From a virus, in IMG/VR virus record IMGVR_UViG_3300021963_000611, positions 1 to 24,931 of that record: DNA of 24,931 bases; one strand, written 5' to 3'. Below are positions 1-16,931 of this stretch, piece by piece. The notes under the pieces were generated by a model, which worked only from the letters and a program-made list of their open reading frames with translations, did not search any database and had not been told where the DNA came from. The translations under genes were made by a program, and so were the position numbers. Position 1 is the stretch's first letter; each line of letters opens with the position of its first letter.

Positions 1-49
1 TTCGTTTTTTAGGTGTATGGTTATACTTAAATAGAAAACAGTTATTACA

Positions 50-475
50 ATGGGTCGAGTTTTAGAATGCAAGGTTTGTGGTACGTACGTTCAAAATGTA
101 GGAGATGATGCAGTTTCAGTTACTTGTTGGGAGTGTGTCATAGAAGCACAGCGAGAGTACGACGAACCAATAGTAAGAAAAAAGTTTGCGACAGCTCAAG
201 GTTTTCCAAAAGGCTGGAGATTTATGAAGGAGTTTGTACATGCAGACGGATCTGTTTTCCATAAAGGCGTAGAACAGCCAGATCTTAAAGGTAAATTGCA
301 ACCAACAGCAATTGTCGTAAAACCTAAGAAATCAAAAGCTCAGAAAGCTCAAGAAAAGGCTGAAGCAATGAAGAAGTATTCCGACTTGAAGAAGCAGCTT
401 AAAAAAGAAACACGCAAAGGAGCTATTAAGAAAATAGAATCAGAATTAAAAAGGTTACAAAAACAAATCATATGA
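50..475 (+). CDS. Small zinc-ribbon-like protein with Lys-rich C-terminal helix
   Basis: 141 aa. I do not recognise a named family. Two CxxC pairs near the N-terminus (C7-x2-C10 and C26-x2-C29) form a typical four-cysteine zinc-ribbon arrangement. The middle (about 45-85) is a short globular segment containing GFPKGWRFMKEFVHADGSVF. The last 55 residues are very rich in Lys, Glu and Gln and should form a charged helix or coiled coil that could bind nucleic acid or a partner. The stop overlaps the next start (ATGA at 472-475), so it is translationally coupled to the HD-domain gene. It is the first gene of a five-gene group that includes the late sigma factor, so a role in transcription is possible, but that rests on position alone. 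The start at 50 has no Shine-Dalgarno sequence, like nearly all genes here. Confidence 0.8.
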   Translation: MGRVLECKVCGTYVQNVGDDAVSVTCWECVIEAQREYDEPIVRKKFATAQGFPKGWRFMKEFVHADGSVFHKGVEQPDLKGKLQPTAIVVKPKKSKAQKAQEKAEAMKKYSDLKKQLKKETRKGAIKKIESELKRLQKQII

Positions 476-2520: not shown

Positions 2521-2865
2521 ATGGATAAGGATAGTTTACTATTTGATGATAAGTCCTTCAGCGACTTGCTCAGAGATGTATATAACAATACGAAGAAGAA
2601 GGAATCCCAGATCAACGGTTTGATTGATCAATTAAAGCCGTTAATTAAGAATATGACAGATGCATCACTAATGGTACCTCTTATTAAGGAGTACCTGGAA
2701 ATCTCAGTTAAGAATGATGATAACCTAGTGAGACTGACAGCAATCATTCAACGCCTGCTTGTAGTAGGTGCTAAGAGTGAAAAAGGTGATGAGATGGGAT
2801 TAACAGAGGCAGAACGCAAACAGCTTTTAGAAGAAGCTCAACACTTAATGGATAATAGTAAATAA
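2521..2865 (+). CDS. Small helical protein, first gene of the hub block
   Basis: 114 aa, family not recognised. It is almost wholly helical by composition: amphipathic helices around SFSDLLRDVYNNTKKKESQI, then INGLIDQLKPLIKN, a middle segment LIKEYLEISVKNDDNLVRLT, and a charged C-terminus LTEAERKQLLEEAQHLMDNS. There is no signal peptide or membrane segment. Its stop overlaps the next start (TAATGA, shared base at 2865), coupling it to the OB-like hub protein. Its position directly after a promoter motif and ahead of hub genes suggests a small structural or assembly factor for the baseplate, but this is only context. Confidence 0.7.
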   Translation: MDKDSLLFDDKSFSDLLRDVYNNTKKKESQINGLIDQLKPLIKNMTDASLMVPLIKEYLEISVKNDDNLVRLTAIIQRLLVVGAKSEKGDEMGLTEAERKQLLEEAQHLMDNSK

Positions 2866-3881
2866 TGAGTACGTTTTTTCAAGACATATCGGGTTTATAT
2901 AAAGGACCACAGACTGGAACTACTGATGGCTTACAACAGCTTAAAGTGTTTCCTGGCCATGTGCTAGAAATATGTCTTGATGAGAACTCGTCATTGTATG
3001 AGTCTAATAGGGATATTGGTAAGATCCGCTTTCGAGATTTAGTACGAGAGTATAATAAAGAAGAAAAAGCCGCTGTTAAGACAGCCTATCCGTTAGATAG
3101 GTCAATGGCTCGATACCCATTACCAGGTGAGGAGGTTATTATATTTAGAGCCTTTGGAGAAACAACATCTCCAAACTCAACGGTACTAGCAAACATATTC
3201 TTCTACAGCTTTGTTGTTAGTACTTTACATAACATTTCATATAATGCCAATCCATTTGTAGGGACAGATAAATACCATATCGATAAGAAGAATCCATTCA
3301 TGTCTTATGATCAAGCTAAGAAACGCTTACAATCTAAGATTAAGAATGCTAACGCTGTTGTCGATGTTGATAATAAGCCAAAGGTATACAAACAGTTACA
3401 ACCTTTTGAGGGTGATTTTATCCTTCAAGGCCGTTTCGGAACTAGTATCCGACACACTGCAACACTACCGAAAGCTGATAATCCTTGGAAGTCCTCCGGA
3501 ACAGCTGGTGATGGATTAATCATTCTAAGAGCAGATCGTGACTCAACAAACAAAGAGTCAGACATGCTAACACTAGAGGATATTAATGTTGACGATGCAT
3601 CAATCTATATGTGCACATCACAAAAGATAGAATTAGACTTGGCTTGCTCAAAGTATATGAGATCATGGGCAGCGACTTACGATATTCCTGCACACGGTTC
3701 AGCTGAAGCAGCAGATACATTCCAAAGATCTGTTGATACGTCAGGATTGTGGCAGAAAGCTGTGGAGACCGATAAACCTGCTGATCAAGCTTTCAAAGCA
3801 CCAGCGGCAGCAGAGGGAGGAGATACCCCTAACCCACCAACACCACCAGCACCAAATACACAAACAACCGAAAGTAATTAA
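2865..3881 (+). CDS. Baseplate hub protein with gp5-like OB-fold segment
   Basis: 338 aa. The segment at about 170-256 resembles the OB-type structural protein of T4-like phages: LQPFEGDFILQGRFGTSIRH, a short insert, GDGLIILRAD, then LEDINVDDASIYMCTSQKIE. In T4 the equivalent OB domain is the N-terminal part of gp5, which sits in the hub above the tail lysozyme. The first 130 residues hold a mixed alpha/beta domain with PLPGEEVIIFRAFG, which also looks like a barrel strand pair. The last about 40 residues are low-complexity Pro, Ala, Thr and Asn (EGGDTPNPPTPPAPNTQTTE), a flexible linker or tail. The muramidase gene starts 1 nt after its stop. Assignment as a hub protein is moderately firm; the exact T4 equivalent rests on pattern and neighbours. 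Confidence 0.72.
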   Translation: MSTFFQDISGLYKGPQTGTTDGLQQLKVFPGHVLEICLDENSSLYESNRDIGKIRFRDLVREYNKEEKAAVKTAYPLDRSMARYPLPGEEVIIFRAFGETTSPNSTVLANIFFYSFVVSTLHNISYNANPFVGTDKYHIDKKNPFMSYDQAKKRLQSKIKNANAVVDVDNKPKVYKQLQPFEGDFILQGRFGTSIRHTATLPKADNPWKSSGTAGDGLIILRADRDSTNKESDMLTLEDINVDDASIYMCTSQKIELDLACSKYMRSWAATYDIPAHGSAEAADTFQRSVDTSGLWQKAVETDKPADQAFKAPAAAEGGDTPNPPTPPAPNTQTTESN

Positions 3882-3882
3882 T

Positions 3883-4806
3883 ATGGGATGGACAACACCG
3901 CCGACAGTAAGTCCAGGCTTAAAACAAGACTTGGATTCGTTTGTCACAGTAGCAAGAAATAACGCAGCTGCAATTGCTGAGAAATTATATTACAAAGCAT
4001 TAACCTCATCTGGTGTAACTGCTAAGGTAAGTTTACCACCACTGATTGAGTTAGTAAACAAATTACTGATTCCGACTGTACATCGTTGGGAAGGTGGTTG
4101 GGCAGATCATCCCAGCGATCCAGGAGGTGCTACTATGAGGGGTGTAACATTAGCAACCTTCAAAAGTACATTCAATACAATCTTTATTAGCACTGGAATC
4201 CCACAAGTAAAGACAGCAGCAGAAGCTCTCAACAATAAGCACAACTGGAAAAGCGATAATGCAAAAGCTAAGCAATTCCTTTACACCATCTGCAACGACG
4301 AGTTGGTAGGTGGTTTGTGGTTTTCTCACTTCTTATCGGACAAAGATAACCGATACCCAATTGCTGTTATGACAGAGGATCCTTACTTAGGATACTTCTT
4401 TGCAGCAACAACTTGGTGGTCAGGAGCTGGTGCATATTCTAAAAGTGGATTTGATGAAGTTGCCAAATCAATGGGATGGAATGGTAGTGATGATGGTTGG
4501 GCAAAGTTTATAGCCGGTCTAGGAGCTAAGACACCTGAGTTTGCTAGTAGGGTGTTGGTTAAGCGTTGTGCAAAATTACAAGCCATTACTGGAGCTAATG
4601 GATCACCAGGACCTGAATTTCGTAATGGGTTTATGAATAGGTTTATGAATGATCCTAAGCAGTCAGATGTAATCATGTTAGTTCGCATAAACGAGATGTT
4701 CAATCTAAATGCTCAAGGAACATTTCAATTATCACCAGCAGAGCTACAACATCTCAAAAACAAGGGTGAGACATATAAAACATTCAGCATAGAATTACCA
4801 GGATAA
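3883..4806 (+). CDS. GH108-type muramidase, probable tail lysozyme
   Basis: 307 aa. Residues 68-84 (HRWEGGWADHPSDPGGAT), followed by RGVT, are the signature of the GH108 N-acetylmuramidase family, with E70 as the expected catalytic acid. A VGGLWFSHFL segment follows and fits the substrate-cleft helices. The region from about 160 to 255 continues as a helical domain like those that follow the catalytic part in this family. Such enzymes cleave the glycan strands of peptidoglycan. An upstream in-frame extension to 3733 runs through the Pro-rich 3' end of the previous gene and is out-of-frame noise; ATG 3883, 1 nt after that stop, gives a clean start. It sits between an OB-like hub gene and a spike gene, and has no signal peptide or holin neighbour, so it is more likely virion-borne (making a hole during entry) than an endolysin. 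Confidence 0.85.
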   Translation: MGWTTPPTVSPGLKQDLDSFVTVARNNAAAIAEKLYYKALTSSGVTAKVSLPPLIELVNKLLIPTVHRWEGGWADHPSDPGGATMRGVTLATFKSTFNTIFISTGIPQVKTAAEALNNKHNWKSDNAKAKQFLYTICNDELVGGLWFSHFLSDKDNRYPIAVMTEDPYLGYFFAATTWWSGAGAYSKSGFDEVAKSMGWNGSDDGWAKFIAGLGAKTPEFASRVLVKRCAKLQAITGANGSPGPEFRNGFMNRFMNDPKQSDVIMLVRINEMFNLNAQGTFQLSPAELQHLKNKGETYKTFSIELPG

Positions 4807-5708
4807 TGAAATTAACGTACGATCAACTTAAACAAACACTTGAGTCTGGAGGAGGATTAGGTCTTCCTACGCAGGGAGGTGTGCCACCCGGTACACCAAT
4901 CCAAGGTACGTTTACTGGTACTGTGACAATCGAAGTACCACAACTACCGAAGATTGAATTTCCGATGGAAGACTTCACATATAAGTCAGCCATTGCCGGA
5001 AGCGTTACAGACCTCAATAAGGTGTTATCCTTAAAGGGTTCTGATGGTGGCGTAAAAACAAACAATTACGCAGGGAGTCAATTACTGTTTAATTCAGATC
5101 GTTTAATATTAAACGCAAAGACCAACTACCTGATGCTCTTTGGTCAGCAAGGTGTTGCACTTTCATCTCAAGGGAGTGTTAATATTGATGCTGATGACAG
5201 TGTTACAATATTTGCAGGTGATGGTTTATTCTTGGGAGTGCCTGCACAAGGTACTGGTGATAAGGGAAACCAAAAAGCACCAAAGACTAAAGCAGATCCT
5301 ACAATCGACTTTGAATACGAACCAGTTGTGTTGGGTACCAAATTAGCAAACCTTTTTGAGGACTTGCTAGTGATCCTAAAAAATGCAACTCTACTAACAC
5401 CAGTTGGTAAGGGTTATTTCAGAGAAGATGTGATGTATGAATTTGCTGCATTACAAGCGCGTATTCCGGAGATATTAAGTACGTATGCGTATGTCGATGG
5501 AATAAGTCATGAAGGTGTTGATCCTGCACCAGAACCACCTAAGACAGTAACTGAACCACCAACAACATTGGTAGGAACTGTGACTGGTACATTTACCGGA
5601 ACAACTGGAGCAATCGATCCAAACGCTCCATCAAATGTTATTACAAACCCTCTAGCAGATCAACCGGATTTCTTTGATACGGAGACGCTGTATGGAGATG
5701 AACTATAA
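4806..5708 (+). CDS. Beta-structured spike protein resembling the gp5 C-terminal part
   Basis: 300 aa. Residues about 88-145 are a run of short beta strands with regularly spaced small and hydrophobic residues (SQLLFNSDRLILNAK, YLMLFGQQGVALSSQ, GSVNIDADDSVTIFAGDGLF). This is the pattern of the triple-stranded beta-helix or needle that ends T4 gp5 and VgrG spikes. A helical segment follows (LGTKLANLFEDLLVILKNAT, 176-195), then Pro/Thr-rich linkers. A Gly-Thr repeat motif appears near both ends (GTFTGTVTIE at 34-43, GTVTGTFTGT at 257-266). The first base of its ATG is the last base of the muramidase stop, so the two are coupled. Role inferred: tip of the membrane-piercing device. It could instead be a structural protein that binds the hub without forming the needle. 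Confidence 0.66.
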   Translation: MKLTYDQLKQTLESGGGLGLPTQGGVPPGTPIQGTFTGTVTIEVPQLPKIEFPMEDFTYKSAIAGSVTDLNKVLSLKGSDGGVKTNNYAGSQLLFNSDRLILNAKTNYLMLFGQQGVALSSQGSVNIDADDSVTIFAGDGLFLGVPAQGTGDKGNQKAPKTKADPTIDFEYEPVVLGTKLANLFEDLLVILKNATLLTPVGKGYFREDVMYEFAALQARIPEILSTYAYVDGISHEGVDPAPEPPKTVTEPPTTLVGTVTGTFTGTTGAIDPNAPSNVITNPLADQPDFFDTETLYGDEL

Positions 5709-5716
5709 AAGTTATT

Positions 5717-7030
5717 ATGGGAAGCTTAAAAGATAGAGTAGTACAGATTAACCAAGCTATTGTGTTATCAGAGGCACAAACTAACTTCGGATACTTGACA
5801 GCTGCGTTGCAGAAAGATAAGGGTATTGCTTTAACCCTTGATCAGTCTTATATGTCAAAATACGATGTAGCAGATGAATTGCGTAAGTTTGTAAAAGATA
5901 AGACAAATAAGCCATCAGCGGAAATTAAGCCGTTATTAGACACTAACAAAACAATAGCTGACATCACAAAGGAAGGTCAGTTTGATAAGTTAAAAGAATT
6001 CTTAGATGGTCTTTCAGCAGCTGATTTTGAACCACCACTACCAAGCAAATTCAAATCACCAGCTGGTATAGATGTGTTTCCAGTACCAGGAAAGATTTCA
6101 AATGATCCACGTAGAACTGGTCGAATCATACAACCAGGTCCGTCAGGTACTTTGGCACAAACAGAGGTGCAGAAGTGGATGGTAAACAATAGTGTGTTGT
6201 ATGGCTTTGTTCCATACAGTGATAACGCTTTATACTACATTGGTGTTGAGCAAATTAAAACACAACTAAAGTCAGCAAGTGATAAACAGGGTCAGCTATC
6301 CAAGATAGTTGGTAAGTTTTTGAAGAACGGACAACTGCTTTCATCATTAACTGTGAGTGCTCAAACAGTAATAGACAATAAACTTCCAGACGCAGGAATA
6401 TTCCCGGATCCAGGAAACCTAGAAGGTATTCCAAATCATGGTGTTATGTCTAACGATAAGAGGATACTAGACTTAGTTGTAGTAGATGGTCAACCAGTTT
6501 GGAGACCAGCAGCACTTGCAGCATTGGCAATGCAAGCAGAAGCTAAAAAGCAAGGAGTGAATCTGAGCGTTACCTCAGGATTTAGACCAGCGTTTGGTAA
6601 AAACGTAAAAGTAACGACTACCAAAGGTAGACAGATTACTATGACAACTCAAGAAACTCTGAGACGTGATAGAGGTCGTTGGGTTGGTAGAAGTTCCTTC
6701 AGCGGTACTGATGAGGACTTTGTTTTCAAGGCAGGCTCTAGTAAGTATAGTGCTGCAACCGCACCGCCAGGATCCTCTAACCACGGATCTGGAATCGCAA
6801 TTGACTGGAATGTTGGTGGTAGAAATAACTTCTCACCTCTAAAGACAGCAAACTATGTGTGGTTGGCAAGAAACGCTCATAAGTTTGGGTTTGTGCGTAC
6901 GGTAGGTTCTGAGGAGTGGCATTGGGAGTATATTCCAGCAAAGGCTAAGAATGGACCATATGCAGTGCTATCAAACAAGGAGAGTAATAAATGGTATGCT
7001 GATCTAGCACTAAACAACCTTACTGTATAA
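5717..7030 (+). CDS. M15-family peptidoglycan peptidase (VanY-like), probable tail enzyme
   Basis: 437 aa. The C-terminal domain (about 260-410) carries the full M15 / D-Ala-D-Ala carboxypeptidase signature: SGFR (287-290), SNHGSGIAIDW (354-364, zinc ligands H356 and D363), NAHKFGFVR, and E400-W401-H402 with H402 as the third ligand. These zinc enzymes cut peptide stems of peptidoglycan. At residues 154-176 a second, degenerate copy of the C-terminal motif appears (WMVNNSVLYGFVPYSDNALY), with the WHWE catalytic residues replaced by LYYIG. There is no signal peptide. The gene lies 8 nt after the spike gene and overlaps the tape-measure-like gene by 1 nt, so it is likely a virion enzyme that works with the adjacent muramidase during entry. 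A lysis role is less likely given the context. Confidence 0.84.
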   Translation: MGSLKDRVVQINQAIVLSEAQTNFGYLTAALQKDKGIALTLDQSYMSKYDVADELRKFVKDKTNKPSAEIKPLLDTNKTIADITKEGQFDKLKEFLDGLSAADFEPPLPSKFKSPAGIDVFPVPGKISNDPRRTGRIIQPGPSGTLAQTEVQKWMVNNSVLYGFVPYSDNALYYIGVEQIKTQLKSASDKQGQLSKIVGKFLKNGQLLSSLTVSAQTVIDNKLPDAGIFPDPGNLEGIPNHGVMSNDKRILDLVVVDGQPVWRPAALAALAMQAEAKKQGVNLSVTSGFRPAFGKNVKVTTTKGRQITMTTQETLRRDRGRWVGRSSFSGTDEDFVFKAGSSKYSAATAPPGSSNHGSGIAIDWNVGGRNNFSPLKTANYVWLARNAHKFGFVRTVGSEEWHWEYIPAKAKNGPYAVLSNKESNKWYADLALNNLTV

Positions 7031-9945
7031 TGCCATATAATTTTGAAGCGACATTCGTACAACCATTACTAACACAACTTGACGCAGGACAGATCAAGGG
7101 GGCTGAGTCATGGGCGGATGCGATTACAAAAGCTTATATCAACACAATTAAAATGGGGCTTCCACAAGGAGCTCCTACAACATTACCAGCTCCAGGTTTA
7201 GCAGTTCCACCTGCACCACCTCCACCATATCCAATTGTCGTTACACCATTCACCACTGCCAATACTAAGAGTAAGGCAATGTATACTATTGTGCATGCGT
7301 ATTTCGTGGCTAAAGAGATGAAGCTTGAAAAGGGTGCGATTCAAAGTTTAATTGCATCGGTAAAGCAATTAATCATGAAAGTCAAGCAGAGGTATGGACA
7401 AGTTAAAGCTTTGGTAGAACGTATCAAGCAGATCACTGAGCAATTAAAGGAATTGCCTAAGCTGATAAAGGATATCATCACAGATATTAAAGAAGAGATC
7501 AAGAGTCAGATTGGAAAGGTAAAGGAGATATTCGATCAGATGAAATCGATGGAGGTTGATCTTGGACCAGTAGAGTGGAGCAACTTATTCCAACAAGAGT
7601 TAGCGTTGATTGACAAGCTAAAAAACTTTGATATTACCTCAATTGCGGGTATTAGGGATTTGGCTTTATTAATATCTTCTTATGGAAAACGTACCGATGG
7701 TATTATAGGTCTGTCTAACAATAGTCAAGCAGCAAAAAACTATTTTCAATCGAAGCTAATGGCAATAGCTCAGGAGTTTCTAAAGTTTGGTGACGCAGTT
7801 GTGGATCCAACAAAAATCCTCGACTTCCTAAACGGAATAGCAGCTGCAAGACCTCGAATAGATCGGTTATTACAAAAGGTAAAGCGATTCGATCTGTTTG
7901 TACGATTCTTGCAACCAAAGCTTAGAAAGCTGGAGTACAAAAAGAAGGAGTTGATTAAGAAGATTCGTGAAGCTATACAACCAAAGATATTAGAGCTTCA
8001 GAAGAAGTTGAGTGACAAAGTCGCAGAGTATACTAAGAGATTCCAAAACAGCAAAGTAGCTTCTTTATACAAGAATGCGAAAAAGACGATAAACGATTAC
8101 AAGCAGAAATATCAGAAGAAGGTTAAGAGGGAGAAGGATAGAATCATGCTGCTCAAAAAAGCATATCAACAGACAATAAAAGCTGTTGGTACGTCAACAG
8201 CATTGATAGAAGGTCTAAAGCTGGAGTTCAAGAGCATTCAGAGTGAGATCGAAGAATATCAGCAAAAGCTAAAGAACATCGATCTTCCAGAATTTAATAA
8301 ACCTACACCGCCAGATTTTGACTTGCAGGGGTTGAGTCCTAAAGCTTTGAAAGCTGAGTTAGATAAGGCTAAGGACTATTTCAACTCCCTAGGTCTTGCT
8401 GAGTTTGGTAGTTTGGGAGCATTGGTAATTACGCAAGTGAAGTGTGACTTCACAGTATTCAAAACGTTTTTTGAACGCAAGAGAAATACCATCAAGAAGT
8501 ATGTTGATGAGATAGTTGAATTGGAAAAGACTGTTAAAGGGTTGTTTAATACATTGCAGGAAATCCGAGATACTAAAAAGAAGAATCGAAAGAGAGTTGA
8601 TGCTAATAAGTCTAATTTTGAGGCTTGGGCATCTAAGAGACTAAAGTCTATGAAGGATGTTATGCACACATTAGTTGTGTGGATGAAACCAACACTCAAC
8701 CGTATTAAGCAGTGGATCTCTAAGAAGATTAAACAAGTAACCGACTTTATCAAGAATGACTTGAGAAAGTTTGAGGAAGACTTGAAGGTGTTTGCAATCA
8801 ACCTATTACCGATAAAGAGTGATTTACAAGATAAAAAAGACGCCAAATTAGAAGCAGAAGCTAAACTACGAAAAATACGAGATAAGATCGCTAAGATTAA
8901 GAGATTAATCAAATTAGGATCCTTTGTGCAGAAAATGGTGAAAGGCTCGTTAAAGCTGATTAATAACGTTTCTACAGGCAATATAAAATTATCAGAGAAT
9001 GAGCTTCATATAAACACCTTCCTGGATGGTTATTATGGTTTGAAAGTGGAACAATCACCAAGCCAACAACCAATGTTAATGGATCAAAAACGTAGATTTA
9101 AGGACGAGTTCAAGGCTTTGTTGGTTATTGAAGCGTTGGTGTATGGTTTGATTGAGACAGCTAAGGATATTAAGGATACGGACTTCAAAGCAGAGCTAGA
9201 AAAGCTTCTTCAAAATGCTAAGAGTAATACGCCTGGAGTAAATACACTAAAAGCTATTCAAGGACTGGCAACAAACCCACCAAAAGACCTCAACACACTC
9301 AAATCAACGCTTGAGTCATTAGGTACGGATCTAGTGGTTGATAGTTCTATGGCTACTAACATCCTTAATCTTGAACGTAAGTACTTGCTACGAAGTCGTG
9401 AGACTGTAAAAGTGTTGTGTGATTCTAAGAAGATCCAGAACACTAAGTTTGCTCCAAAGTTGGATAAAATTAAAAACACGTTAGAGAAAAATCAATCATT
9501 CATCCTGCTAGGTTTTAAGATGCTTAATGAGGAGTTGAAGAAGTTTGTTGCTTGGATTAAGAAGAAAATAAAAAAGGTTGTGGATGCGATCAAGGTAAAA
9601 CTACAAGCTATTCGAGCAAAGGTTGAAAAGCAGGCGCAAGAAGAGGTGAAAAAGTATACCGAAAAGAAAGTTAATTTGGAAGCTCCTATAATGAGCGCAG
9701 TACTCGGATTAGCAGCACGAGCTTTGTGGACAGGAGCAACATGGACCAGTCCGGCCGGAGTACAGCACGTTTCATTAAACATTGGAGTTTTCAAACCAAT
9801 GAAGGCAAAGAGTACTGATGGTGCTTCTGTGATGATTCGTGAAATGGCCAAAGGGTTTGAGGCTCAGCTAACGGTGATGAGTGGTTTAGTAATCCCACCA
9901 GCTAACACTGGTATACCACCTCTGCCATTTACGGGCTACAAATAA
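7030..9945 (+). CDS. Long helical tape-measure-like tail protein
   Basis: 971 aa. From about residue 90 to 880 the protein is dominated by Lys/Glu/Gln/Leu-rich helices, many with heptad character (for example QLIMKVKQRYGQVKALVERI and VKGLFNTLQEIRDTKKKNRK), and it has almost no cysteine. The N-terminus has a Pro-rich linker (45-70, including VPPAPPPPYP), and the C-terminal about 85 residues switch to a compact Gly/Ala/Pro-rich domain ending TGIPPLPFTGYK. Size, helicity and position in the hub block fit the tape-measure / hub length-determining protein (T4 gp29, 590 aa). No specific gp29 motif is visible, so a long structural coiled coil of another role is possible. If the whole were extended helix it would span roughly 145 nm (1.5 A per residue), longer than the T4 tail. 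Confidence 0.66.
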   Translation: MPYNFEATFVQPLLTQLDAGQIKGAESWADAITKAYINTIKMGLPQGAPTTLPAPGLAVPPAPPPPYPIVVTPFTTANTKSKAMYTIVHAYFVAKEMKLEKGAIQSLIASVKQLIMKVKQRYGQVKALVERIKQITEQLKELPKLIKDIITDIKEEIKSQIGKVKEIFDQMKSMEVDLGPVEWSNLFQQELALIDKLKNFDITSIAGIRDLALLISSYGKRTDGIIGLSNNSQAAKNYFQSKLMAIAQEFLKFGDAVVDPTKILDFLNGIAAARPRIDRLLQKVKRFDLFVRFLQPKLRKLEYKKKELIKKIREAIQPKILELQKKLSDKVAEYTKRFQNSKVASLYKNAKKTINDYKQKYQKKVKREKDRIMLLKKAYQQTIKAVGTSTALIEGLKLEFKSIQSEIEEYQQKLKNIDLPEFNKPTPPDFDLQGLSPKALKAELDKAKDYFNSLGLAEFGSLGALVITQVKCDFTVFKTFFERKRNTIKKYVDEIVELEKTVKGLFNTLQEIRDTKKKNRKRVDANKSNFEAWASKRLKSMKDVMHTLVVWMKPTLNRIKQWISKKIKQVTDFIKNDLRKFEEDLKVFAINLLPIKSDLQDKKDAKLEAEAKLRKIRDKIAKIKRLIKLGSFVQKMVKGSLKLINNVSTGNIKLSENELHINTFLDGYYGLKVEQSPSQQPMLMDQKRRFKDEFKALLVIEALVYGLIETAKDIKDTDFKAELEKLLQNAKSNTPGVNTLKAIQGLATNPPKDLNTLKSTLESLGTDLVVDSSMATNILNLERKYLLRSRETVKVLCDSKKIQNTKFAPKLDKIKNTLEKNQSFILLGFKMLNEELKKFVAWIKKKIKKVVDAIKVKLQAIRAKVEKQAQEEVKKYTEKKVNLEAPIMSAVLGLAARALWTGATWTSPAGVQHVSLNIGVFKPMKAKSTDGASVMIREMAKGFEAQLTVMSGLVIPPANTGIPPLPFTGYK

Positions 9946-9954
9946 AACCGAACA

Positions 9955-9970
9955 CTATTTATATTAAAAC
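9955..9970 (+). promoter_or_regulatory. Late-promoter-like motif before the gp25/gp6 block
   Basis: CTATTTATATTAAAAC sits in the 28-nt gap before ATG 9974 and is nearly identical to the copy before 19413 (15 of 16 bases). The core TATTTATA (9956-9963) is the exact reverse complement of the T4 late -10 TATAAATA. It ends 3 nt before the start codon. Confidence 0.6.
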
Positions 9971-9973
9971 AAG

Positions 9974-10411
9974 ATGAAAGGATCTGAATTTGTAAACCTT
10001 TTACGTAAAGTGATTCGTGAAGAAGTGCGATCAGTCGTAAAAGAAGAGCTGAAACAAGCTCTCAAACCAGTTATCGTCGAAAATACAACAAAGGTTTCGA
10101 AGGCAACTACACCAACTGCTCCAAAAAAAGCAGCACCAACAACCAAAGCGCCTAAGTTTGAAGGACCAATGGCTGGTATCCTAGCTGAGACTTATCAGTC
10201 AATGCTAATGGATCCAGTAGAGGATCCCGAAGCAGAGTGGCCTGATATGAACATGGGTGGAATGATGAGTAATATGGTACAAGGACAGCCAATGCCAATG
10301 TCACAAGGAGGTGTAGCTGCGATGAACCAGGAAGTAAATATGGATAGTTTGATGCGCGACTATTCTCACGTATTAAAGGCATCTGAACAAAAGTCGCAAG
10401 GTAGATTCTAA
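9974..10411 (+). CDS. Small structural-type protein with basic helix and Met-rich tail
   Basis: 145 aa, family not recognised. Residues 3-35 form one long charged amphipathic helix (LLRKVIREEVRSVVKEELKQ). An Ala/Thr/Pro/Lys linker follows (39-61), then GPMAGILAETYQSMLMDP, then a Met/Gly-rich segment (92-125, with MNMGGMMSNM and PMPMSQGG). A short C-terminal part, MDSLMRDYSHVLKAS, completes it. This modular, low-complexity layout suits an adaptor or a protein that binds a larger assembly by its helix. Its stop overlaps the gp25 start by one base, and it directly follows a promoter motif, so it leads the wedge transcription unit. A role in baseplate assembly is likely from context only. Confidence 0.7.
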   Translation: MKGSEFVNLLRKVIREEVRSVVKEELKQALKPVIVENTTKVSKATTPTAPKKAAPTTKAPKFEGPMAGILAETYQSMLMDPVEDPEAEWPDMNMGGMMSNMVQGQPMPMSQGGVAAMNQEVNMDSLMRDYSHVLKASEQKSQGRF

Positions 10412-10836
10412 TGGCAGTCGAAATAAAATTACATCCGCTTGATTTTGAACCAGACGTTGCAGTCGGTATTGATCTTCCTATGATCAGTGGCGTAGGCGCA
10501 GCTTTCAAGATGAATTACACAACACTAGATCAAGCAGTAGCAAACGCTAAAAACCTTCTACTAACTAATAAAGGTGAACGTATAATGCAGCCTGACTTTG
10601 GATGTGATTTGAGAAGTACTCTGTTTGAAAATATTACAGAGGAGCTTACTGTTACGATGGATAATACCATCCGTGAGAGTTTTGATTATTGGCTTCCTTA
10701 TATATTTATTAACAAGCTGACTATAACACCATACCCCGAAAATAACCGTATCAACATTTTGATGGAGATTAGTTTAGAGGGTAACAAATTTGACACAAGA
10801 TCAATCCAGCTTGAATTGACAAATACGAACGGATAA
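10411..10836 (+). CDS. 25: gp25-like baseplate wedge protein
   Basis: 141 aa, close to T4 gp25 (132 aa). The conserved gp25/GpW core is clear at 42-73: AVANAKNLLLTNKGERIMQ followed by PDFGCDLRSTLFE, the LxTxxGERxMxPxFGCxL...FE pattern of the family. The C-terminal strand region (KLTITPYPENNRINILMEIS) fits too. In contractile tails gp25 joins the wedge core to the sheath and primes sheath polymerisation. It is followed after 4 nt by gp6, the usual order of these two genes in T4-like and related contractile systems. It has no unusual features beyond the 30-residue N-terminal arm. Confidence 0.93.
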   Translation: MAVEIKLHPLDFEPDVAVGIDLPMISGVGAAFKMNYTTLDQAVANAKNLLLTNKGERIMQPDFGCDLRSTLFENITEELTVTMDNTIRESFDYWLPYIFINKLTITPYPENNRINILMEISLEGNKFDTRSIQLELTNTNG

Positions 10837-10840
10837 AACA

Positions 10841-12733
10841 ATGGCAAATATATCTAAAACAACATCGAAAGATATTAAGTACCTTGGTAGGGACTTTGAC
10901 TCTCTTAAAAAGGGATTAATTGACTTTGCCAGAATTTACTATCCGAATACGTACAATGACTTCAACGAAGCATCACCAGGAATGATGTTTGTTGAAATGG
11001 CTGCTTACGTTGGTGATGTGTTGAACTACTACGTTGACTCCCAATTCAAAGAGTCAATGCTTTTACACGCTACCGAAACACGTAGCGTAATGTCTATTGC
11101 ATCTGCAATGGGCTACAAACCAAAGATGTCTACACCATCAATTGTAGACGTTGATATATTTCAGCTACTACCACCATCAGGAAGCGGTAATCAAACAGCA
11201 CCAGATATGCGTTACGCATTGAAAATCGAACCAGGTATGCGTTTGAGAAGTAGTGTTGGCAGTACTGAGTTTATGGTTCAGAACAAGGTTGACTTTTCAA
11301 TCAACAATCAATTTGATCCAACAACCATTTCGGTATATAAATTGGATGGTAGTGGTTTGCCAGAATATTACATGGCTAAGAAGACGGTTAAAGCTGTTTC
11401 AGCTCAACCAAAGACAATGACTGTCGATGTCACATCACCTACCAAATTTTTCAAATTCCTAATTCAAGATACAAACCTAATCGGTATAGACTCAATTAAG
11501 GATGCAGATGGGAATATTTGGTATGAGGTACCTTACCTAGCTCAAGATACGATTTTTGAAAAATTACAAAATACAACATACAATGATCCTGATGCTGCTG
11601 TTTATAGTAGTGAGACGCCTTATCTAATGAAACTGAAACGTGTACCTAGAAGATTTATTTCTAGAGTCACTGAAGATGGAATAGAGGTGCAATTCGGATC
11701 GGGAGTTAGCTCATCGCCAGACGAAGAGTTATTGGCAACACCAGAGAATATCAGTCTTTCCTTACCTACTGGAAAGGATGATATTGATTGGTCAGTAGAT
11801 CCAGCAGCTCCAGTGATTACTAAGGCTTACGGTATTGCTCCATCAAACACAACGTTGACAGTAACCTATTTAGTTGGTGGTGGTATTAGCTCAAATTCAC
11901 CGAGTAATACAATCAACGAGATTATTGGCGTTGACACCTCGGGCACAAGTTTGCCAACTTCTAATCCAACACTGAATGCAACAATCTTCAACTCAGTAGC
12001 AGTAAACAACGCGGTGGCAGCTTCTGGCGGTCGTGGTGCTGAGACTTTAGATGAGATTCGAGAAAACGCAATTGCACAACTTGCATCTCAAAACAGGGCA
12101 GTAACAAAGGAAGATTATATTGTAAGAGCTTATGCAATGCCAAATGTATTTGGTAGTGTTGCTAAAGTTTACATAAGCCCAGACGAACAAAACAACATTC
12201 AATCGTCGGAAGTTAATGACACAGTGGCAAACCCACTAGCATTGAATATGTACATGCTTGGATATGACAACAATAAGAATTGTGTGAAAGTTAACCGAGC
12301 TGTGAAAGAAAACTTGAAAACATATCTATCACAATATAGAATGCTGACAGATAGCATTAACTTTAGAGATGCTTATGTCATCAATATAGGAGTTGATTTT
12401 GATGTCATTCCAATTCCTAGCTTTAATGCAAATGAGGTTATTTTGGGTTGTGTGACAGCTCTAAAATCCTACTTTGAGATTGACAAATGGCAGATCAATC
12501 AGCCTATTGTATTTAGTGACCTATTCAACACACTACTCAAAGTTAATGGTGTACAGACTGTGACAGGGATTAAGATCAAGAATCTTAATGATGAATTGCA
12601 AGGATACAGCAATGTGTATTACGATATTCAAGAGGCTACTCGAAACGGTATAGTATACCCAAGTCTAGATCCAGCCATATTCGAAGTAAAGTATCCAAAT
12701 AACGATATAAAAGGACGCATAGTAACATTCTAA
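10841..12733 (+). CDS. 6: gp6-like (J-family) baseplate wedge protein
   Basis: 630 aa; T4 gp6 is 660 aa. The N-terminal domain (about 9-95) carries the hallmark sequence: DIKYLGRDFDSLKKGLIDFA, then YPNTYNDFNEASPGMMFVEM, then AAYVGDVLNYYVDSQFKESM. The J-like core motif GGRGAETLDEIRENAIAQL (397-415) with SQNRAVTKEDYIVRA after it is also present. This protein forms the ring of the baseplate wedges (two copies per wedge in T4), linking gp25 and gp53 to the peripheral parts. Middle residues 140-390 are strand-rich and more variable, as usual. It lies 4 nt after gp25 and 2 nt before the DNRLRE-domain gene. Confidence is high for the family. Confidence 0.94.
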   Translation: MANISKTTSKDIKYLGRDFDSLKKGLIDFARIYYPNTYNDFNEASPGMMFVEMAAYVGDVLNYYVDSQFKESMLLHATETRSVMSIASAMGYKPKMSTPSIVDVDIFQLLPPSGSGNQTAPDMRYALKIEPGMRLRSSVGSTEFMVQNKVDFSINNQFDPTTISVYKLDGSGLPEYYMAKKTVKAVSAQPKTMTVDVTSPTKFFKFLIQDTNLIGIDSIKDADGNIWYEVPYLAQDTIFEKLQNTTYNDPDAAVYSSETPYLMKLKRVPRRFISRVTEDGIEVQFGSGVSSSPDEELLATPENISLSLPTGKDDIDWSVDPAAPVITKAYGIAPSNTTLTVTYLVGGGISSNSPSNTINEIIGVDTSGTSLPTSNPTLNATIFNSVAVNNAVAASGGRGAETLDEIRENAIAQLASQNRAVTKEDYIVRAYAMPNVFGSVAKVYISPDEQNNIQSSEVNDTVANPLALNMYMLGYDNNKNCVKVNRAVKENLKTYLSQYRMLTDSINFRDAYVINIGVDFDVIPIPSFNANEVILGCVTALKSYFEIDKWQINQPIVFSDLFNTLLKVNGVQTVTGIKIKNLNDELQGYSNVYYDIQEATRNGIVYPSLDPAIFEVKYPNNDIKGRIVTF

Positions 12734-12735
12734 TT

Positions 12736-13824
12736 ATGGTAATAAGATTCTATCCAACAAAGGACGCCACAATATACGAGGCAAACCCAAATAAAAATAC
12801 TGGGTTGGATGCCATATTGGAACTAAACAAGACAATCACAGCTACTGGTGCATATAATTCTAGGGTATTGTTGGGATTTGATTATTCCGCAATATCCTCT
12901 AGCATAGCTGCATTAGGAGTCAATCCGAAGAGTTGTAGTTTTGGTTTGAGAATGTATACAGCAACAGCTGATGAGATTCCAACAGACTACACTTTATATG
13001 CATATCCTATTGGTGATACTTGGGATATGGGTGTTGGAAGATCCACAAACATTCCAATCACTACAACTGGCGTAAGTTGGTTGTATCGTGAGTCAGAGGA
13101 TATTCCTTCAACAGCTTGGCCTACTGCATCATTTCCAGCTGGAACAACCAGCTCTTGGAATGGTTCGGTTGGCGGTGGTATTTGGTATACCTCTTCAGCA
13201 GCATCACAATCATATTCATACACAACCACAGACATTGACATGGATGTGAATAGTATTATGAGAGGTGTTCAATCAGGAAGTTTTCCTTTCTATGGATTCT
13301 TGATTAAGAAGAGTGATACGGATGAAGCTTCAGCTAAATTGTTTGGAAGCTTAAAGTTCTTCAGTAAAGATACAAACACAGTTTACTTACCAGTACTTGA
13401 AGTCAAGTATGACGATAGTGTAAATGCTCAGTCATTAACACCAATTAACGTAAACGAGGAGAATCGAATTATATTAACAAACTTAAAAAAGTCGTACCCG
13501 GAAAATTCAAGACCAATTTTTAGAATTTCGGCAAGACCGTTATATCCGCCGTACACATTCAGTACTGTAGATCCTCACTTGGTAGAATACAGATTACCAA
13601 CTGGATCCCAGTATGCTGTGTATAGTGCTCAAAGTGAGGATGTTGTTATTGATTTTAGCAACTACACAAAGGTGAGTGACGACGCTGCAGGCAACTATAT
13701 AAAATTGCACTTGGATAGTTTTCAACCAGAAAGATACTACAAACTATTGTTTAGAGTTCCTAATGGAGATGGTACATATGAAGTGTACGACAACAAGTGG
13801 ATTTTCAAAGTTGCACGTAGCTAA
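12736..13824 (+). CDS. DNRLRE-type domain virion protein
   Basis: 362 aa. The N-terminal about 225 residues look like a DNRLRE beta-jelly-roll: FYPTKDATIYEANPNKNTG, SRVLLGFDYSAI, YPIGDTWDMGVGR, TGVSWLYRE and a GGGIW segment, the family's usual spacing of a DATI start, an R-LL-FD strand, WD-G-GR and SW. Such domains occur on extracellular and surface proteins and are often taken to bind glycans. The C-terminal part (about 240-362) is a second beta domain ending in RYYKLLFRVPNGDGTYEVYD and IFKVARS, without a recognised family. It follows gp6 by 2 nt and overlaps the Ig-protein start by 1 nt. In T4 this position holds gp7 and gp8, but I see no similarity. Role: probably peripheral baseplate or host-recognition. 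Confidence 0.7.
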   Translation: MVIRFYPTKDATIYEANPNKNTGLDAILELNKTITATGAYNSRVLLGFDYSAISSSIAALGVNPKSCSFGLRMYTATADEIPTDYTLYAYPIGDTWDMGVGRSTNIPITTTGVSWLYRESEDIPSTAWPTASFPAGTTSSWNGSVGGGIWYTSSAASQSYSYTTTDIDMDVNSIMRGVQSGSFPFYGFLIKKSDTDEASAKLFGSLKFFSKDTNTVYLPVLEVKYDDSVNAQSLTPINVNEENRIILTNLKKSYPENSRPIFRISARPLYPPYTFSTVDPHLVEYRLPTGSQYAVYSAQSEDVVIDFSNYTKVSDDAAGNYIKLHLDSFQPERYYKLLFRVPNGDGTYEVYDNKWIFKVARS

Positions 13825-16800
13825 TGAGGTTTCCAGATAATTCATTAAACGGTGATCTAAACGATAATATCGCTCCAAAGATATCAGGTAGCGTTACCAG
13901 AATCTCTGCGTCTGATTTGAATGAGAATGAGACGGTTTATGATCTATTACCAGTAATTGTCAACAGACCACCAGTAATAACCAAATCAATCTCAGAGGCA
14001 TCATCACCTCCAATTAAGCCATACACAGCTGCAAATGCAACTGGCGAGGCTATGTACCAATTCCCGGATGGAACGGTGAAGATAAACTTGGGTGCAAAAG
14101 TAACTCTCAGAGTCAAAGCTGAACAACCACCCATCCTAAATGTAGAGAATGGTGTACCAACAATGATCAAATCAACACAGGGTTTGACTTATGTTTGGCG
14201 TAAAGATGGTCAGATGATAGTTTCTGAGTATCGTGAGTCTTTAGCATCGTCTGTAACAGTGAAAGGATCTCAACTGGTGTTTGATAACATGCAACCAAGA
14301 GACGCTGGAACATACACTTGCGAAATCTCGAACGATATTGGTACAGTATCTAGCGAACCGATACAAGTAGAGGTCTTAAACCTAGACTTCGACTCCTACT
14401 TTTATAGAAATCTCATTAAGAATCCATACGGATTAGATGGTACAAATGACTGGTCAGCAAATAATGATGATTTAACTACTAAGGCATTAGTTAAGACTGA
14501 ATCACCGCAAGACTTTATACAACCCAATAAGGTAAACCTATTTGGTTATACTATGGATATGATGCATCCAAGGCCATATCAAATTGAACCTGGTGTCATA
14601 CAAGATTTGAAAATGACTGACACGTTTCTCAAATCAGGTGCTTCTTACTTTACCAGAACGAGATATAAGTTTGAAACAAAGGGTGGTTCTTTTCTAGTAA
14701 GAGCTTATCAAGATATTGATCTATCGGATATTCAATGGCTGATTAAGGGTGGGGTATTTGGTGTTGAAGGTGTGAGAGCTTTCTTCAGCTGCTATATAGG
14801 AATGGCATTGCCATCCTTCATTCCAGTGAAAGAGCTGATTAGCTTGGATCAACGCACTAAGGATACTAACTACGTTATGAGCAGACCTCGTGTAAGTGCT
14901 CAAAACTTCTTAATGGCTGGCCCATCACATGGTCCAAACGAGAATGTTAGTGTGTACTTTGAGGAGTATGATAATGAGACTAGGCTGACTTCTAAGTTAA
15001 TGAGGGAAGATGGTTCTGTGAATGAAGTTAGTGAGCGTATTGCCTTTACGGATCCATGGAGTAAGCGTATGGCAAACTACTGGGGTCAACAGTATTACAA
15101 AAACGATATCTACGGTTTAGGTGAAAAGTCTAAGAGCGATGGTAGAGATGCCACATTATTCACAGCGGATGAATTATACCCAGATCCAAAAACACGATTT
15201 ACATATGGTCAGTATGTGGAGTTTAATAAAGCAATCATTGCAAAACTAAACCCACAAACTACAAAGGTACGAATTACACTAAACTTCAACACTACCGACT
15301 GGCGTTTATTTGAAATGTGGCGAGATGCCTATGAACAGGGTGATGAGATTTTGGATTTTGTGAGTTGGGAAGCACCGTATGAAAGACATAAGTGGACTAG
15401 ACCAGCTTTGGATTGGGGTAAACTGATTGTTCCACAACTAGTGTCTGGTGATGCTGTTAAGGATCGCCTAAGCGCTGATCAATTAAAAACCTACAAAAGT
15501 AAGACTATTGTAGAAAAAGCCGGCTCTGCACAAGATCCACGTGGAATGGTTACTGGTTTGAATTTAGCATTACTGCCAGTATTAACACAGCATCGTGATG
15601 CTACAAACTACTACACATCAATTACGCTAGCACCAAACGAAACACCACAATCGACATTAGAAAGTGGCCTGCAAGTTGGTAGAGATTACGATCCTTATGG
15701 TCTAGCTACAAGAAAATTAAACCTACAGTTTGGATTCAATACAAGTCCAACGCCAAAGTTGAACAAGCTAGGTAGGGTGGTGATGGATCATAAATTAGAA
15801 TTGGGATTGAGTATTCAAAATCCTGGTGAAAAGACTGCTAAAAGACTCGATGTCGATGCTGATAATCTATTACCGTTTGCACCAAATAAAGGTGTGTTCT
15901 ATGAAAAATCTAACACACTCAAGCAAGCCTCTAGTAATATGGCAGCTCTGAGTAGTTACATAAGATACAATACTACTAGCAAAGACTTAAAATTAGCAGC
16001 GTTTAGTACCTACAAAAAGACAGCTGTCGATCCATTACACGATGACAAATATGTTCTCGTAGATGGTGGTGAAAGAGCACCACTACAAGGGGATGAGGAG
16101 TTTAAGGTGTGGAATAATAAGGTAAGATTTGAACTACTATTCAGTTTACCTAGTTCTAGTGTCCAGCAGACACAAGTTAATACGATTTTTTCGGGAGCTC
16201 CACAACCACCAACATATCCACGTCTGCAGAAGTATGAACTAACAATAGATTTCTCAAACAAGAATAACAAAAAGGCACTATTAAAGCGAACAGCTGCAAT
16301 GCCTGGTCAAGGAGCAGGATCCTTCGAATTATCTTATGAGATTGATCCATACGGAAAACTCATAATGCAAATGCCTGACAATCTCGTCTACGGTAGCTCT
16401 ATAATTGGTGGATGGGGTTATACAGCTAAGAAGGAGGATATTGTGATAGCTGATACACCAATCAATCTGTTGAGAGGTCTAAAAGAAAGTGTTATAGTAC
16501 CGGGCGTTCGGCAGTCAAAGGGTGTAGAAGTGTTAGATCACGTAAATTCGATAATCGATAAAGTTAGATCAACCTCTCAATCACGGATCTCTGGCTCTGC
16601 TGCGTACACAGAACTTAACACTTTGGAGAGATATTACAAGCAACTAGATTCCTATCAGAAGGGGTTGATTCAAAATATCAGTCAACCACAATTTGCCGCT
16701 GTTGAGGCAATATGCAAGACGTCTATAACAGTAAATTGGACTGATTTGTTTGGTGCACCAAAACTACGAAACACTACTGAGATGCCTTCTTTAATAGGCG

Positions 16801-16931
16801 TTAGACCAGTCCCATATGCAGACACAGAAGATTTAGGAGGTAGTCCTTCTTATGGTGAGGATGAGTTTGGATTAAGCTACTCAATAAACTACCTACCAAT
16901 CAAAGATTCTGGGTGGGGAACCTACAATTAG
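13824..16931 (+). CDS. Large Ig-domain baseplate/tail protein (paralogue 1)
   Basis: 1035 aa. An I-set Ig-like domain spans about 88-185: VTLRVKAEQ, W125 in TYVWRKDGQ, and D160-x-G-x-Y-x-C166 in MQPRDAGTYTCEISNDIG. The partner cysteine of the B strand is absent, so there is no disulfide. A segment NLIKNPYGLDGTNDW (196-210) follows, of the NL-x-NG-x-W start common to galactose-binding-like modules. Residues 268-330 contain SYFTRTRYKF and GVFGVEGVRAFFSCY. The rest is strand-rich, with no recognised domain. Most of residues 50-540 align with the next gene (see finding). The length is near T4 gp7 (1032 aa), which also follows gp6 in T4, but I see no gp7 similarity. It starts on the last base of the previous stop. 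Likely a peripheral tail protein with surface-binding Ig and beta modules. Confidence 0.78.
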   Translation: MRFPDNSLNGDLNDNIAPKISGSVTRISASDLNENETVYDLLPVIVNRPPVITKSISEASSPPIKPYTAANATGEAMYQFPDGTVKINLGAKVTLRVKAEQPPILNVENGVPTMIKSTQGLTYVWRKDGQMIVSEYRESLASSVTVKGSQLVFDNMQPRDAGTYTCEISNDIGTVSSEPIQVEVLNLDFDSYFYRNLIKNPYGLDGTNDWSANNDDLTTKALVKTESPQDFIQPNKVNLFGYTMDMMHPRPYQIEPGVIQDLKMTDTFLKSGASYFTRTRYKFETKGGSFLVRAYQDIDLSDIQWLIKGGVFGVEGVRAFFSCYIGMALPSFIPVKELISLDQRTKDTNYVMSRPRVSAQNFLMAGPSHGPNENVSVYFEEYDNETRLTSKLMREDGSVNEVSERIAFTDPWSKRMANYWGQQYYKNDIYGLGEKSKSDGRDATLFTADELYPDPKTRFTYGQYVEFNKAIIAKLNPQTTKVRITLNFNTTDWRLFEMWRDAYEQGDEILDFVSWEAPYERHKWTRPALDWGKLIVPQLVSGDAVKDRLSADQLKTYKSKTIVEKAGSAQDPRGMVTGLNLALLPVLTQHRDATNYYTSITLAPNETPQSTLESGLQVGRDYDPYGLATRKLNLQFGFNTSPTPKLNKLGRVVMDHKLELGLSIQNPGEKTAKRLDVDADNLLPFAPNKGVFYEKSNTLKQASSNMAALSSYIRYNTTSKDLKLAAFSTYKKTAVDPLHDDKYVLVDGGERAPLQGDEEFKVWNNKVRFELLFSLPSSSVQQTQVNTIFSGAPQPPTYPRLQKYELTIDFSNKNNKKALLKRTAAMPGQGAGSFELSYEIDPYGKLIMQMPDNLVYGSSIIGGWGYTAKKEDIVIADTPINLLRGLKESVIVPGVRQSKGVEVLDHVNSIIDKVRSTSQSRISGSAAYTELNTLERYYKQLDSYQKGLIQNISQPQFAAVEAICKTSITVNWTDLFGAPKLRNTTEMPSLIGVRPVPYADTEDLGGSPSYGEDEFGLSYSINYLPIKDSGWGTYN

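What the first reader, a model, noticed from the sequence alone, without database searches (positions are those of the whole stretch)
2865..5708. T4 gp5-like tail lysozyme apparently split into three adjacent genes, with a GH108 enzyme in the middle
In T4, gp5 is one polypeptide with an OB domain, a lysozyme and a C-terminal beta-helix needle, cut after assembly. Here the same order occurs as separate, tightly coupled genes: OB-like hub protein with a Pro-rich C-terminal tail (2865-3881), GH108 muramidase (3883-4806) and beta-structured spike-like protein (4806-5708). The enzyme family also differs from the T4 lysozyme fold, so the piercing module would be a modular cassette with an exchangeable enzyme. 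If right, the parts are held together by non-covalent contact instead of autoproteolysis.
Basis: partly seen in the sequence, partly recalled or inferred. Interest (0 to 1): 0.62.

Follow-up and report, generated by a model that had tools for sequence, protein, structure and literature searches.

The report
Phage spike gene split around enzyme
In this phage the gene for the cell-piercing tail spike is broken in two around a gene for a wall-cutting enzyme; relatives have the spike in one piece without it, or carry other enzyme families at the same point, so the break looks like a natural plug-in slot for cell-wall enzymes.

Summary
Genes 2865-3881 and 4806-5708 encode the two halves of one spike protein: in other phages both align to consecutive parts of a single ORF. 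The closest unsplit relative (L176) has the same gene order, one 592-aa spike gene and no GH108 gene. The break falls in a 20-residue linker, and the GH108 gene (Glu70 invariant) sits there. All 12 IMG/VR contigs with this GH108 family carry it between the two halves. A tree of a neighbouring gene, rooted on unsplit relatives, makes the split a single event (100/99).

At the same point other phages of this spike family carry M15 peptidases (separate gene, or fused to the OB half), an amidase, a C39-type or VanY-type peptidase, or nothing. Some thus encode in two genes what T4 makes by cleaving gp5 (gp5* + gp5C).

Corrections: the unsplit relatives have no enzyme, so this is insertion into an enzyme-less spike, not a T4 gp5 falling apart. 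Sequence homology to T4 gp5 was not detected. OB fold and octad needle rest on a predicted model and a repeat test. Non-covalent assembly in virions was not testable. Verdict: new variant of a known kind.

The parts
2865..3881 (+). OB half of the spike (338 aa): OB-like domain, first beta-shaft segment, helical and Pro-rich C-terminal tail
   Evidence: Residues 2-291 align to 3-309 of the unsplit L176 spike (39%, 8e-75); aligns to the N-terminal part of the Mel-JY01 fused spike (6e-14); AF2 pLDDT 76; VIA-align best rows are phage/CIS spikes
2934..3254 (+). OB-like domain (residues about 24-130)
   Evidence: Five strands, pLDDT about 90; A-1(L) spike 8kea_D Z 7.7 over 77 residues, P1 spike 9vzk_q Z 7.8 over 123
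3387..3644 (+). First beta segment of the shaft (residues about 175-260), with the family's conserved EGDxIxxGRxGxSIR motif
   Evidence: Model range 24..258 is covered by P1, Streptomyces CIS, AFP8 and VgrG rows; conserved columns
3648..3878 (+). C-terminal tail of the OB half, conserved LWQKxV motif then Pro-rich end; the pre-break linker
   Evidence: Sequence and alignment
3883..4806 (+). GH108 muramidase gene (307 aa) in the break
   Evidence: Pfam PF05838 7.3e-11; 12 of 12 IMG/VR relatives lie between the two spike halves; absent from the L176 contig
4090..4092 (+). Codon of Glu70, expected catalytic Glu of GH108 (EGG motif)
   Evidence: Invariant in all 9 aligned relatives; catalytic role taken from the family, not tested
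4806..5708 (+). Needle half of the spike (300 aa)
   Evidence: Residues 31-289 align to 329-584 of the unsplit L176 spike (59%, 1e-90); aligns to the C-terminal part of the Mel-JY01 fused spike (1e-13)
4806..4847 (+). N-terminal segment MKxTYDQLKQxL, conserved in the split clade and not aligned to anything in L176; candidate docking element
   Evidence: docking role is inference
5079..5246 (+). Seven octad repeats (residues 92-147), gp5C-like triple-stranded beta-helix periodicity
   Evidence: 0 of 1000 shuffles; T4 gp5 as positive control
5717..7030 (+). Neighbouring protein with VanY peptidase domain at its C-terminus, second wall enzyme of the operon
   Evidence: Pfam VanY 2.2e-17; present also in L176
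10411..10836 (+). gp25-like baseplate wedge protein, places the operon in a contractile-tail baseplate module
   Evidence: PHROG 261 4e-18, Pfam GPW_gp25 1.8e-9

Best explanation
The three genes encode a contractile-tail central spike made in two chains plus the peptidoglycan-cutting enzyme it carries. Shown by sequence: a one-piece, enzyme-less spike gene, as still found in the nearest relatives, was interrupted in a Pro-rich linker between its OB/upper-shaft part and its octad-repeat needle, and a free-standing GH108 muramidase gene occupies the gap. The same point in the wider family is a slot filled by different enzymes, as separate genes or fused to the OB half. Inferred: the OB half trimerises on the hub, the needle half trimerises below it through its beta-helix, and GH108 is held beside the needle by non-covalent contacts, perhaps through its own N-terminal 60 residues, the LWQKxV tail of the OB half and the TYDQLKQ start of the needle half. 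On contraction the needle would pierce the outer membrane and be stripped off, freeing the muramidase to cut the wall, as proposed for T4 gp5.
For: Both halves hit consecutive parts of one ORF in Mel-JY01, LR756508 and Flavobacterium phage immuto. L176 is unsplit, colinear and lacks GH108. Rooted tree of the 7030-9945 gene: 10 split rows form one clade at 100/99, L176 outside. GH108 relatives occupy the slot in 12 of 12 contigs with Glu70 invariant. Other enzymes at the same slot: M15_3, Amidase_2, C39_2, VanY; several are covalently fused to the OB half, which ties slot enzymes to the spike physically. Octads and spike-like fold rows. Purifying selection.
Against: No proteomic or structural evidence that GH108 is in the virion. 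P0001 fold matches are modest (best Z 7.8; no Foldseek PDB E below 1e-3). The P0003 monomer model is poor (pLDDT 60.7) and found no spike. No detectable sequence link to T4 gp5. 59 sampled split spikes have no enzyme at the slot, so a split does not require an enzyme.
Confidence: 0.76

Rival explanations
1. GH108 is an ordinary lysis enzyme (endolysin) gene that happened to land between two structural genes; the spike was split but the enzyme acts at the end of infection, not in the particle.
For: The matching PHROG is labelled endolysin; GH108 hits in Sulfitobacter phages are annotated endolysin; no virion data.
Against: Every member of this GH108 family found lies in this slot, 12 of 12 contigs diverged down to 33% identity. 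At the same slot other phages fuse peptidases or amidases to the OB half. The GH108 gene overlaps the needle gene in TAATG inside a baseplate operon.
Confidence: 0.15
2. The window is a T4-type spike that broke into three genes: the enzyme was in the polypeptide first and the genes fissioned afterwards.
For: Same order OB / enzyme / needle as T4; OB-enzyme fusions with a separate needle exist in the wider family.
Against: The nearest unsplit relatives (L176, L021, L022) have no enzyme in the spike and the split clade lies within them on the rooted tree. No OB-enzyme-needle single ORF was seen among 231 non-redundant spikes sampled.
Confidence: 0.07
3. The 2865 and 4806 products are unrelated baseplate proteins, not halves of one spike.
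For: No family annotation for either.
Against: Both align in order to one ORF in L176 and in reference phages.
Confidence: 0.02

Closest known systems
T4 gp5 (gp5* + gp5C) cell-puncturing spike
   Same: Order OB domain, peptidoglycan enzyme, octad-repeat needle; T4 also ends as two chains held non-covalently, OB+lysozyme and needle (cleavage Ser351/Ala352; PMC3004832). Some relatives here encode the corresponding two chains as two genes.
   Different: No detectable sequence homology; three genes instead of one; GH108 instead of the T4 lysozyme fold; the split is genetic, not post-translational; the break probably follows the first shaft segment; nearest unsplit relatives carry no enzyme.
Enzyme-less spikes of P2 (gpV), P1, A-1(L) gp25 and contractile injection systems (AFP8, PVC8, VgrG)
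   Same: OB domain plus beta-shaft; best structural rows for the 2865 protein.
   Different: One chain, no enzyme gene between the halves. In A-1(L) the wall-cutting domains sit in the hub gp15 (PMC10966104).
Fused spike of Microcystis phage Mel-JY01, Flavobacterium phage immuto gp116 and LR756508
   Same: Homologues of both halves, same synteny upstream of gp25 and gp6.
   Different: Unsplit; Mel-JY01 carries a GH19-type gene after the spike instead of inside it.
GH108 muramidases (phage endolysins)
   Same: PF05838 domain with the EGG glutamate.
   Different: Found only between two spike genes; only short matches (about 10-12% of the query) among 50,697 phage records.

Membership tests
T4 gp5 family (tail lysozyme spike) | N-terminal OB domain | tested here: met
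   AF2 model with spike OB rows at Z 6.2-7.8; modest, because ribosomal OB folds score close behind
T4 gp5 family (tail lysozyme spike) | C-terminal octad-repeat beta-helix | tested here: met
   Octad repeat: 0 of 1000 shuffles, T4 control positive. The fold itself is not confirmed; the monomer model is poor
T4 gp5 family (tail lysozyme spike) | Lysozyme of the T4 fold inside the same polypeptide | tested here: not met
   Separate gene, GH108
T4 gp5 family (tail lysozyme spike) | Sequence homology to T4 gp5 | tested here: inconclusive
   hhalign of family profiles against single T4 gp5: E 0.72 and 0.26
T4 gp5 family (tail lysozyme spike) | Maturation cleavage between enzyme and needle | not testable with these tools
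   No protein data; the chains are encoded separately
GH108 muramidase | PF05838 above gathering score | tested here: met
   42.9 bits vs 21.2
GH108 muramidase | Catalytic Glu in EGG motif | tested here: met
   Glu70 invariant in 9 aligned members
GH108 muramidase | Peptidoglycan cleavage activity | not testable with these tools
   Needs an enzyme assay
Mel-JY01 / L176 spike family | Homology of both halves, in order, to one spike ORF | tested here: met
Mel-JY01 / L176 spike family | Position upstream of gp25 and gp6 wedge genes | tested here: met

The most novel reading that the evidence does not exclude
The linker of this phage spike family is a true exchange slot: wall enzymes of at least five families (GH108, M15, amidase, C39, VanY) have been plugged in, as free genes or as OB-half fusions, with repeated fusion and fission, and phages that make the OB-plus-enzyme chain and the needle chain as separate products have a genetically encoded version of T4's post-translational gp5 cleavage.
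Probability: 0.6. Interest if true: 0.72.

Novelty: new variant of a known kind. Interest (0 to 1): 0.62.

Why it matters
The T4 spike is a textbook protein in which one chain holds hub contact, enzyme and needle and is then cut. This family shows related machines in several states: no enzyme in one piece, no enzyme in two pieces, enzyme as a neighbour gene, and enzyme fused to the OB half with a separate needle. That makes two open questions testable: how enzymes enter and leave spikes in evolution, and whether covalent linkage of enzyme to spike is needed at all. In eight literature searches of an open-access library I found no description of a spike split around an enzyme gene; most subscription papers are not in that library.

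Tried and rejected
PHROGs and Pfam on both halves and PHROGs on 95 and 88 family members: no usable family. PDB sequence search with family profiles: nothing for the OB half, only chance-level rows for the needle half, among them VgrG at E 1.1. hhalign to T4 gp5: no signal. Foldseek for the OB half: no PDB row below 1e-3. Foldseek and VIA-align on the needle half: helical matches mostly to residues 167-234, none to a phage spike; read as uninformative because a triple-stranded helix folded as a monomer gives a poor model. Sequencing or frameshift artefact: rejected, a complete GH108 gene under purifying selection sits in the break in many diverged contigs. Long spike extensions in L102, L103, L104, L107, L122: no Pfam family for L102, and the sequences of L102 and L104 are visibly repeats plus a leucine-rich-like stretch, so not counted as enzymes. 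Extensions of L211, L213, L215, L199 and L316: no Pfam match for the three tested, left unassigned. Search of bacterial genomes with the needle half, to find a host: no relative.

Full report
Observation. The three ORFs are at the stated places. The 2865 gene ends at 3881, the GH108 gene runs 3883-4806 and the needle gene 4806-5708, with a TAATG overlap at the last junction. GH108 is well above Pfam's cut-off. The window is an IMG/VR virus record of 24,931 bases. Downstream lie a VanY-domain protein (5717-7030), a 971-aa coiled-coil-like protein (7030-9945), gp25 (10411-10836) and a gp6-like wedge protein (10841-12733), so this is a contractile-tail baseplate module.

The two outer genes are halves of one protein. 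tblastn with either half against 50,697 phage records finds the same ORF of Microcystis phage Mel-JY01; residues 15-267 of P0001 match its residues 3-254 (6e-14) and residues 84-203 of P0003 match 264-365 (1e-13). The unsplit form also occurs in LR756508 and in Flavobacterium phage immuto, and in all three it lies a few genes before the gp25-like and wedge genes.

The empty site. L176, from a 27.8-kb contig, has the window's gene order on both sides but one 592-aa spike gene. P0001 residues 2-291 align to 3-309 (39%, 8e-75) and P0003 residues 31-289 to 329-584 (59%, 1e-90), leaving a linker of about 20 residues. No GH108 relative is found in that contig; the contig is a fragment, so the phage could carry one elsewhere. 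A tree of the 971-aa neighbour, rooted on the fused L021 and L023, puts L176 outside and the ten split rows together at 100/99. The direction, fused to split, rests on that root.

The enzyme belongs to the slot. A scan of IMG/VR for the GH108 protein found 12 contigs, down to 33% identity; in all 12 it is flanked by both spike halves, one of the halves being cut by the contig end in two of them. Glu70 is invariant in nine aligned members. dN/dS against L002 is about 0.10, 0.08 and 0.02 for the three genes, computed from the printed dN and dS; dS is near saturation, so these are rough. The G+C content of GH108 (0.409) does not differ from its neighbours (0.403 and 0.417).

The slot in the wider family. 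Profiles of the two halves were used to class 231 non-redundant spikes from IMG/VR and the three reference phages: 102 fused, 115 split, 14 with only the OB half seen. The sampling followed my queries, so these are not frequencies. In the split spikes the slot holds GH108 as a gene; M15-type peptidases as a gene (16) or fused to the OB half (11); an amidase fused to the OB half (12, plus one as a gene in L199); a C39-type peptidase fused (L330; also L326 and L210, where the needle half is not seen); a VanY-type domain fused (L242); or nothing (59). Pfam confirms representatives of each type; the remaining members were assigned by BLAST clustering. A 95-row tree needs at least 3 fused/split changes, a 228-row FastTree 6, and 17 changes over all states against 102 for shuffled labels; FastTree joins long branches readily, so the exact numbers are soft. 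In one strongly supported set of 8 rows the slot holds an M15 gene, an M15 fusion, an amidase fusion or nothing.

Fold. The P0001 model (pLDDT 76) is confident over residues 28-130 and about 175-260. VIA-align gives P1, A-1(L), Streptomyces CIS, AFP8, VgrG, Anabaena CIS and Algoriphagus CIS spikes as its first seven rows, Z 6.9-7.8, most of them over residues 24-258; ribosomal OB proteins follow at 6.8 and below, nearly all over the OB part only. Z under 8 may mean only a common arrangement, as the tool warns; the run of spike rows and the coverage beyond the OB barrel are what support a spike. Foldseek in BFVD finds uncultured-phage proteins at 7e-15 to 6e-7, one of them named GH19. P0003 could not be tested by fold; its octad repeat was.

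Mechanism. T4 gp5 is cut between Ser351 and Ala352; the needle gp5C stays bound, holds the lysozyme at about 10% activity, and is thought to be shed on contact with peptidoglycan (PMC3004832). By analogy the split spike here would form an OB/upper-shaft trimer with a needle trimer under it, and GH108 beside the needle. Two segments are candidates for holding it together: the LWQKxV tail of the OB half and the TYDQLKQ start of the needle half, the second conserved in the split clade and not aligned to anything in L176. This step is inference. Phages with OB-M15 or OB-amidase in one ORF and the needle in the next make from two genes what T4 makes by cleavage.

Known or new. The parts are known kinds: spike, GH108, baseplate module. 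The arrangement, a spike gene opened around a free-standing enzyme gene at a slot used by several enzyme families, I did not find described (open-access library only). I file it as a new variant of a known kind.

Noticed in passing
window 5717-7030; L003:7144-7815; L173:6818-7576; L021:3960-4847: The neighbouring protein keeps its N-terminal part, but the C-terminal VanY domain is missing in L003 and L173 and not recognised in L021: possibly a second exchangeable enzyme site in the same operon.
   Followed up: partly
window 4899-4934 and 5565-5603 (P0003 residues about 32-43 and 254-266): Similar short predicted strands, GTFTGTVTIEVP and GTVTGTFTGTTG, flank the needle; function unknown.
   Followed up: no
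L102:5995-8277, L104:2580-4916: Unsplit spikes with about 350 extra C-terminal residues, a Gly-Thr-rich repeat and a leucine-rich-like stretch.
   Followed up: no
L211:3915-5474, L213, L215, L316:974-2131: OB halves with long C-terminal extensions that match no Pfam family where tested; possible further enzymes at the slot.
   Followed up: partly
BFVD A0A6J5MDN0 (549 aa, uncultured phage): Structural match to P0001 in a protein named GH19, which might add another enzyme family to the slot.
   Followed up: no
window 13824-16931: 1035-aa protein with an immunoglobulin-like domain around residues 118-178.
   Followed up: no
L003:7819-8640 and 8650-10686: The homologue of the 7030-9945 gene is in two ORFs here; real split or sequencing error not resolved.
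   Followed up: no
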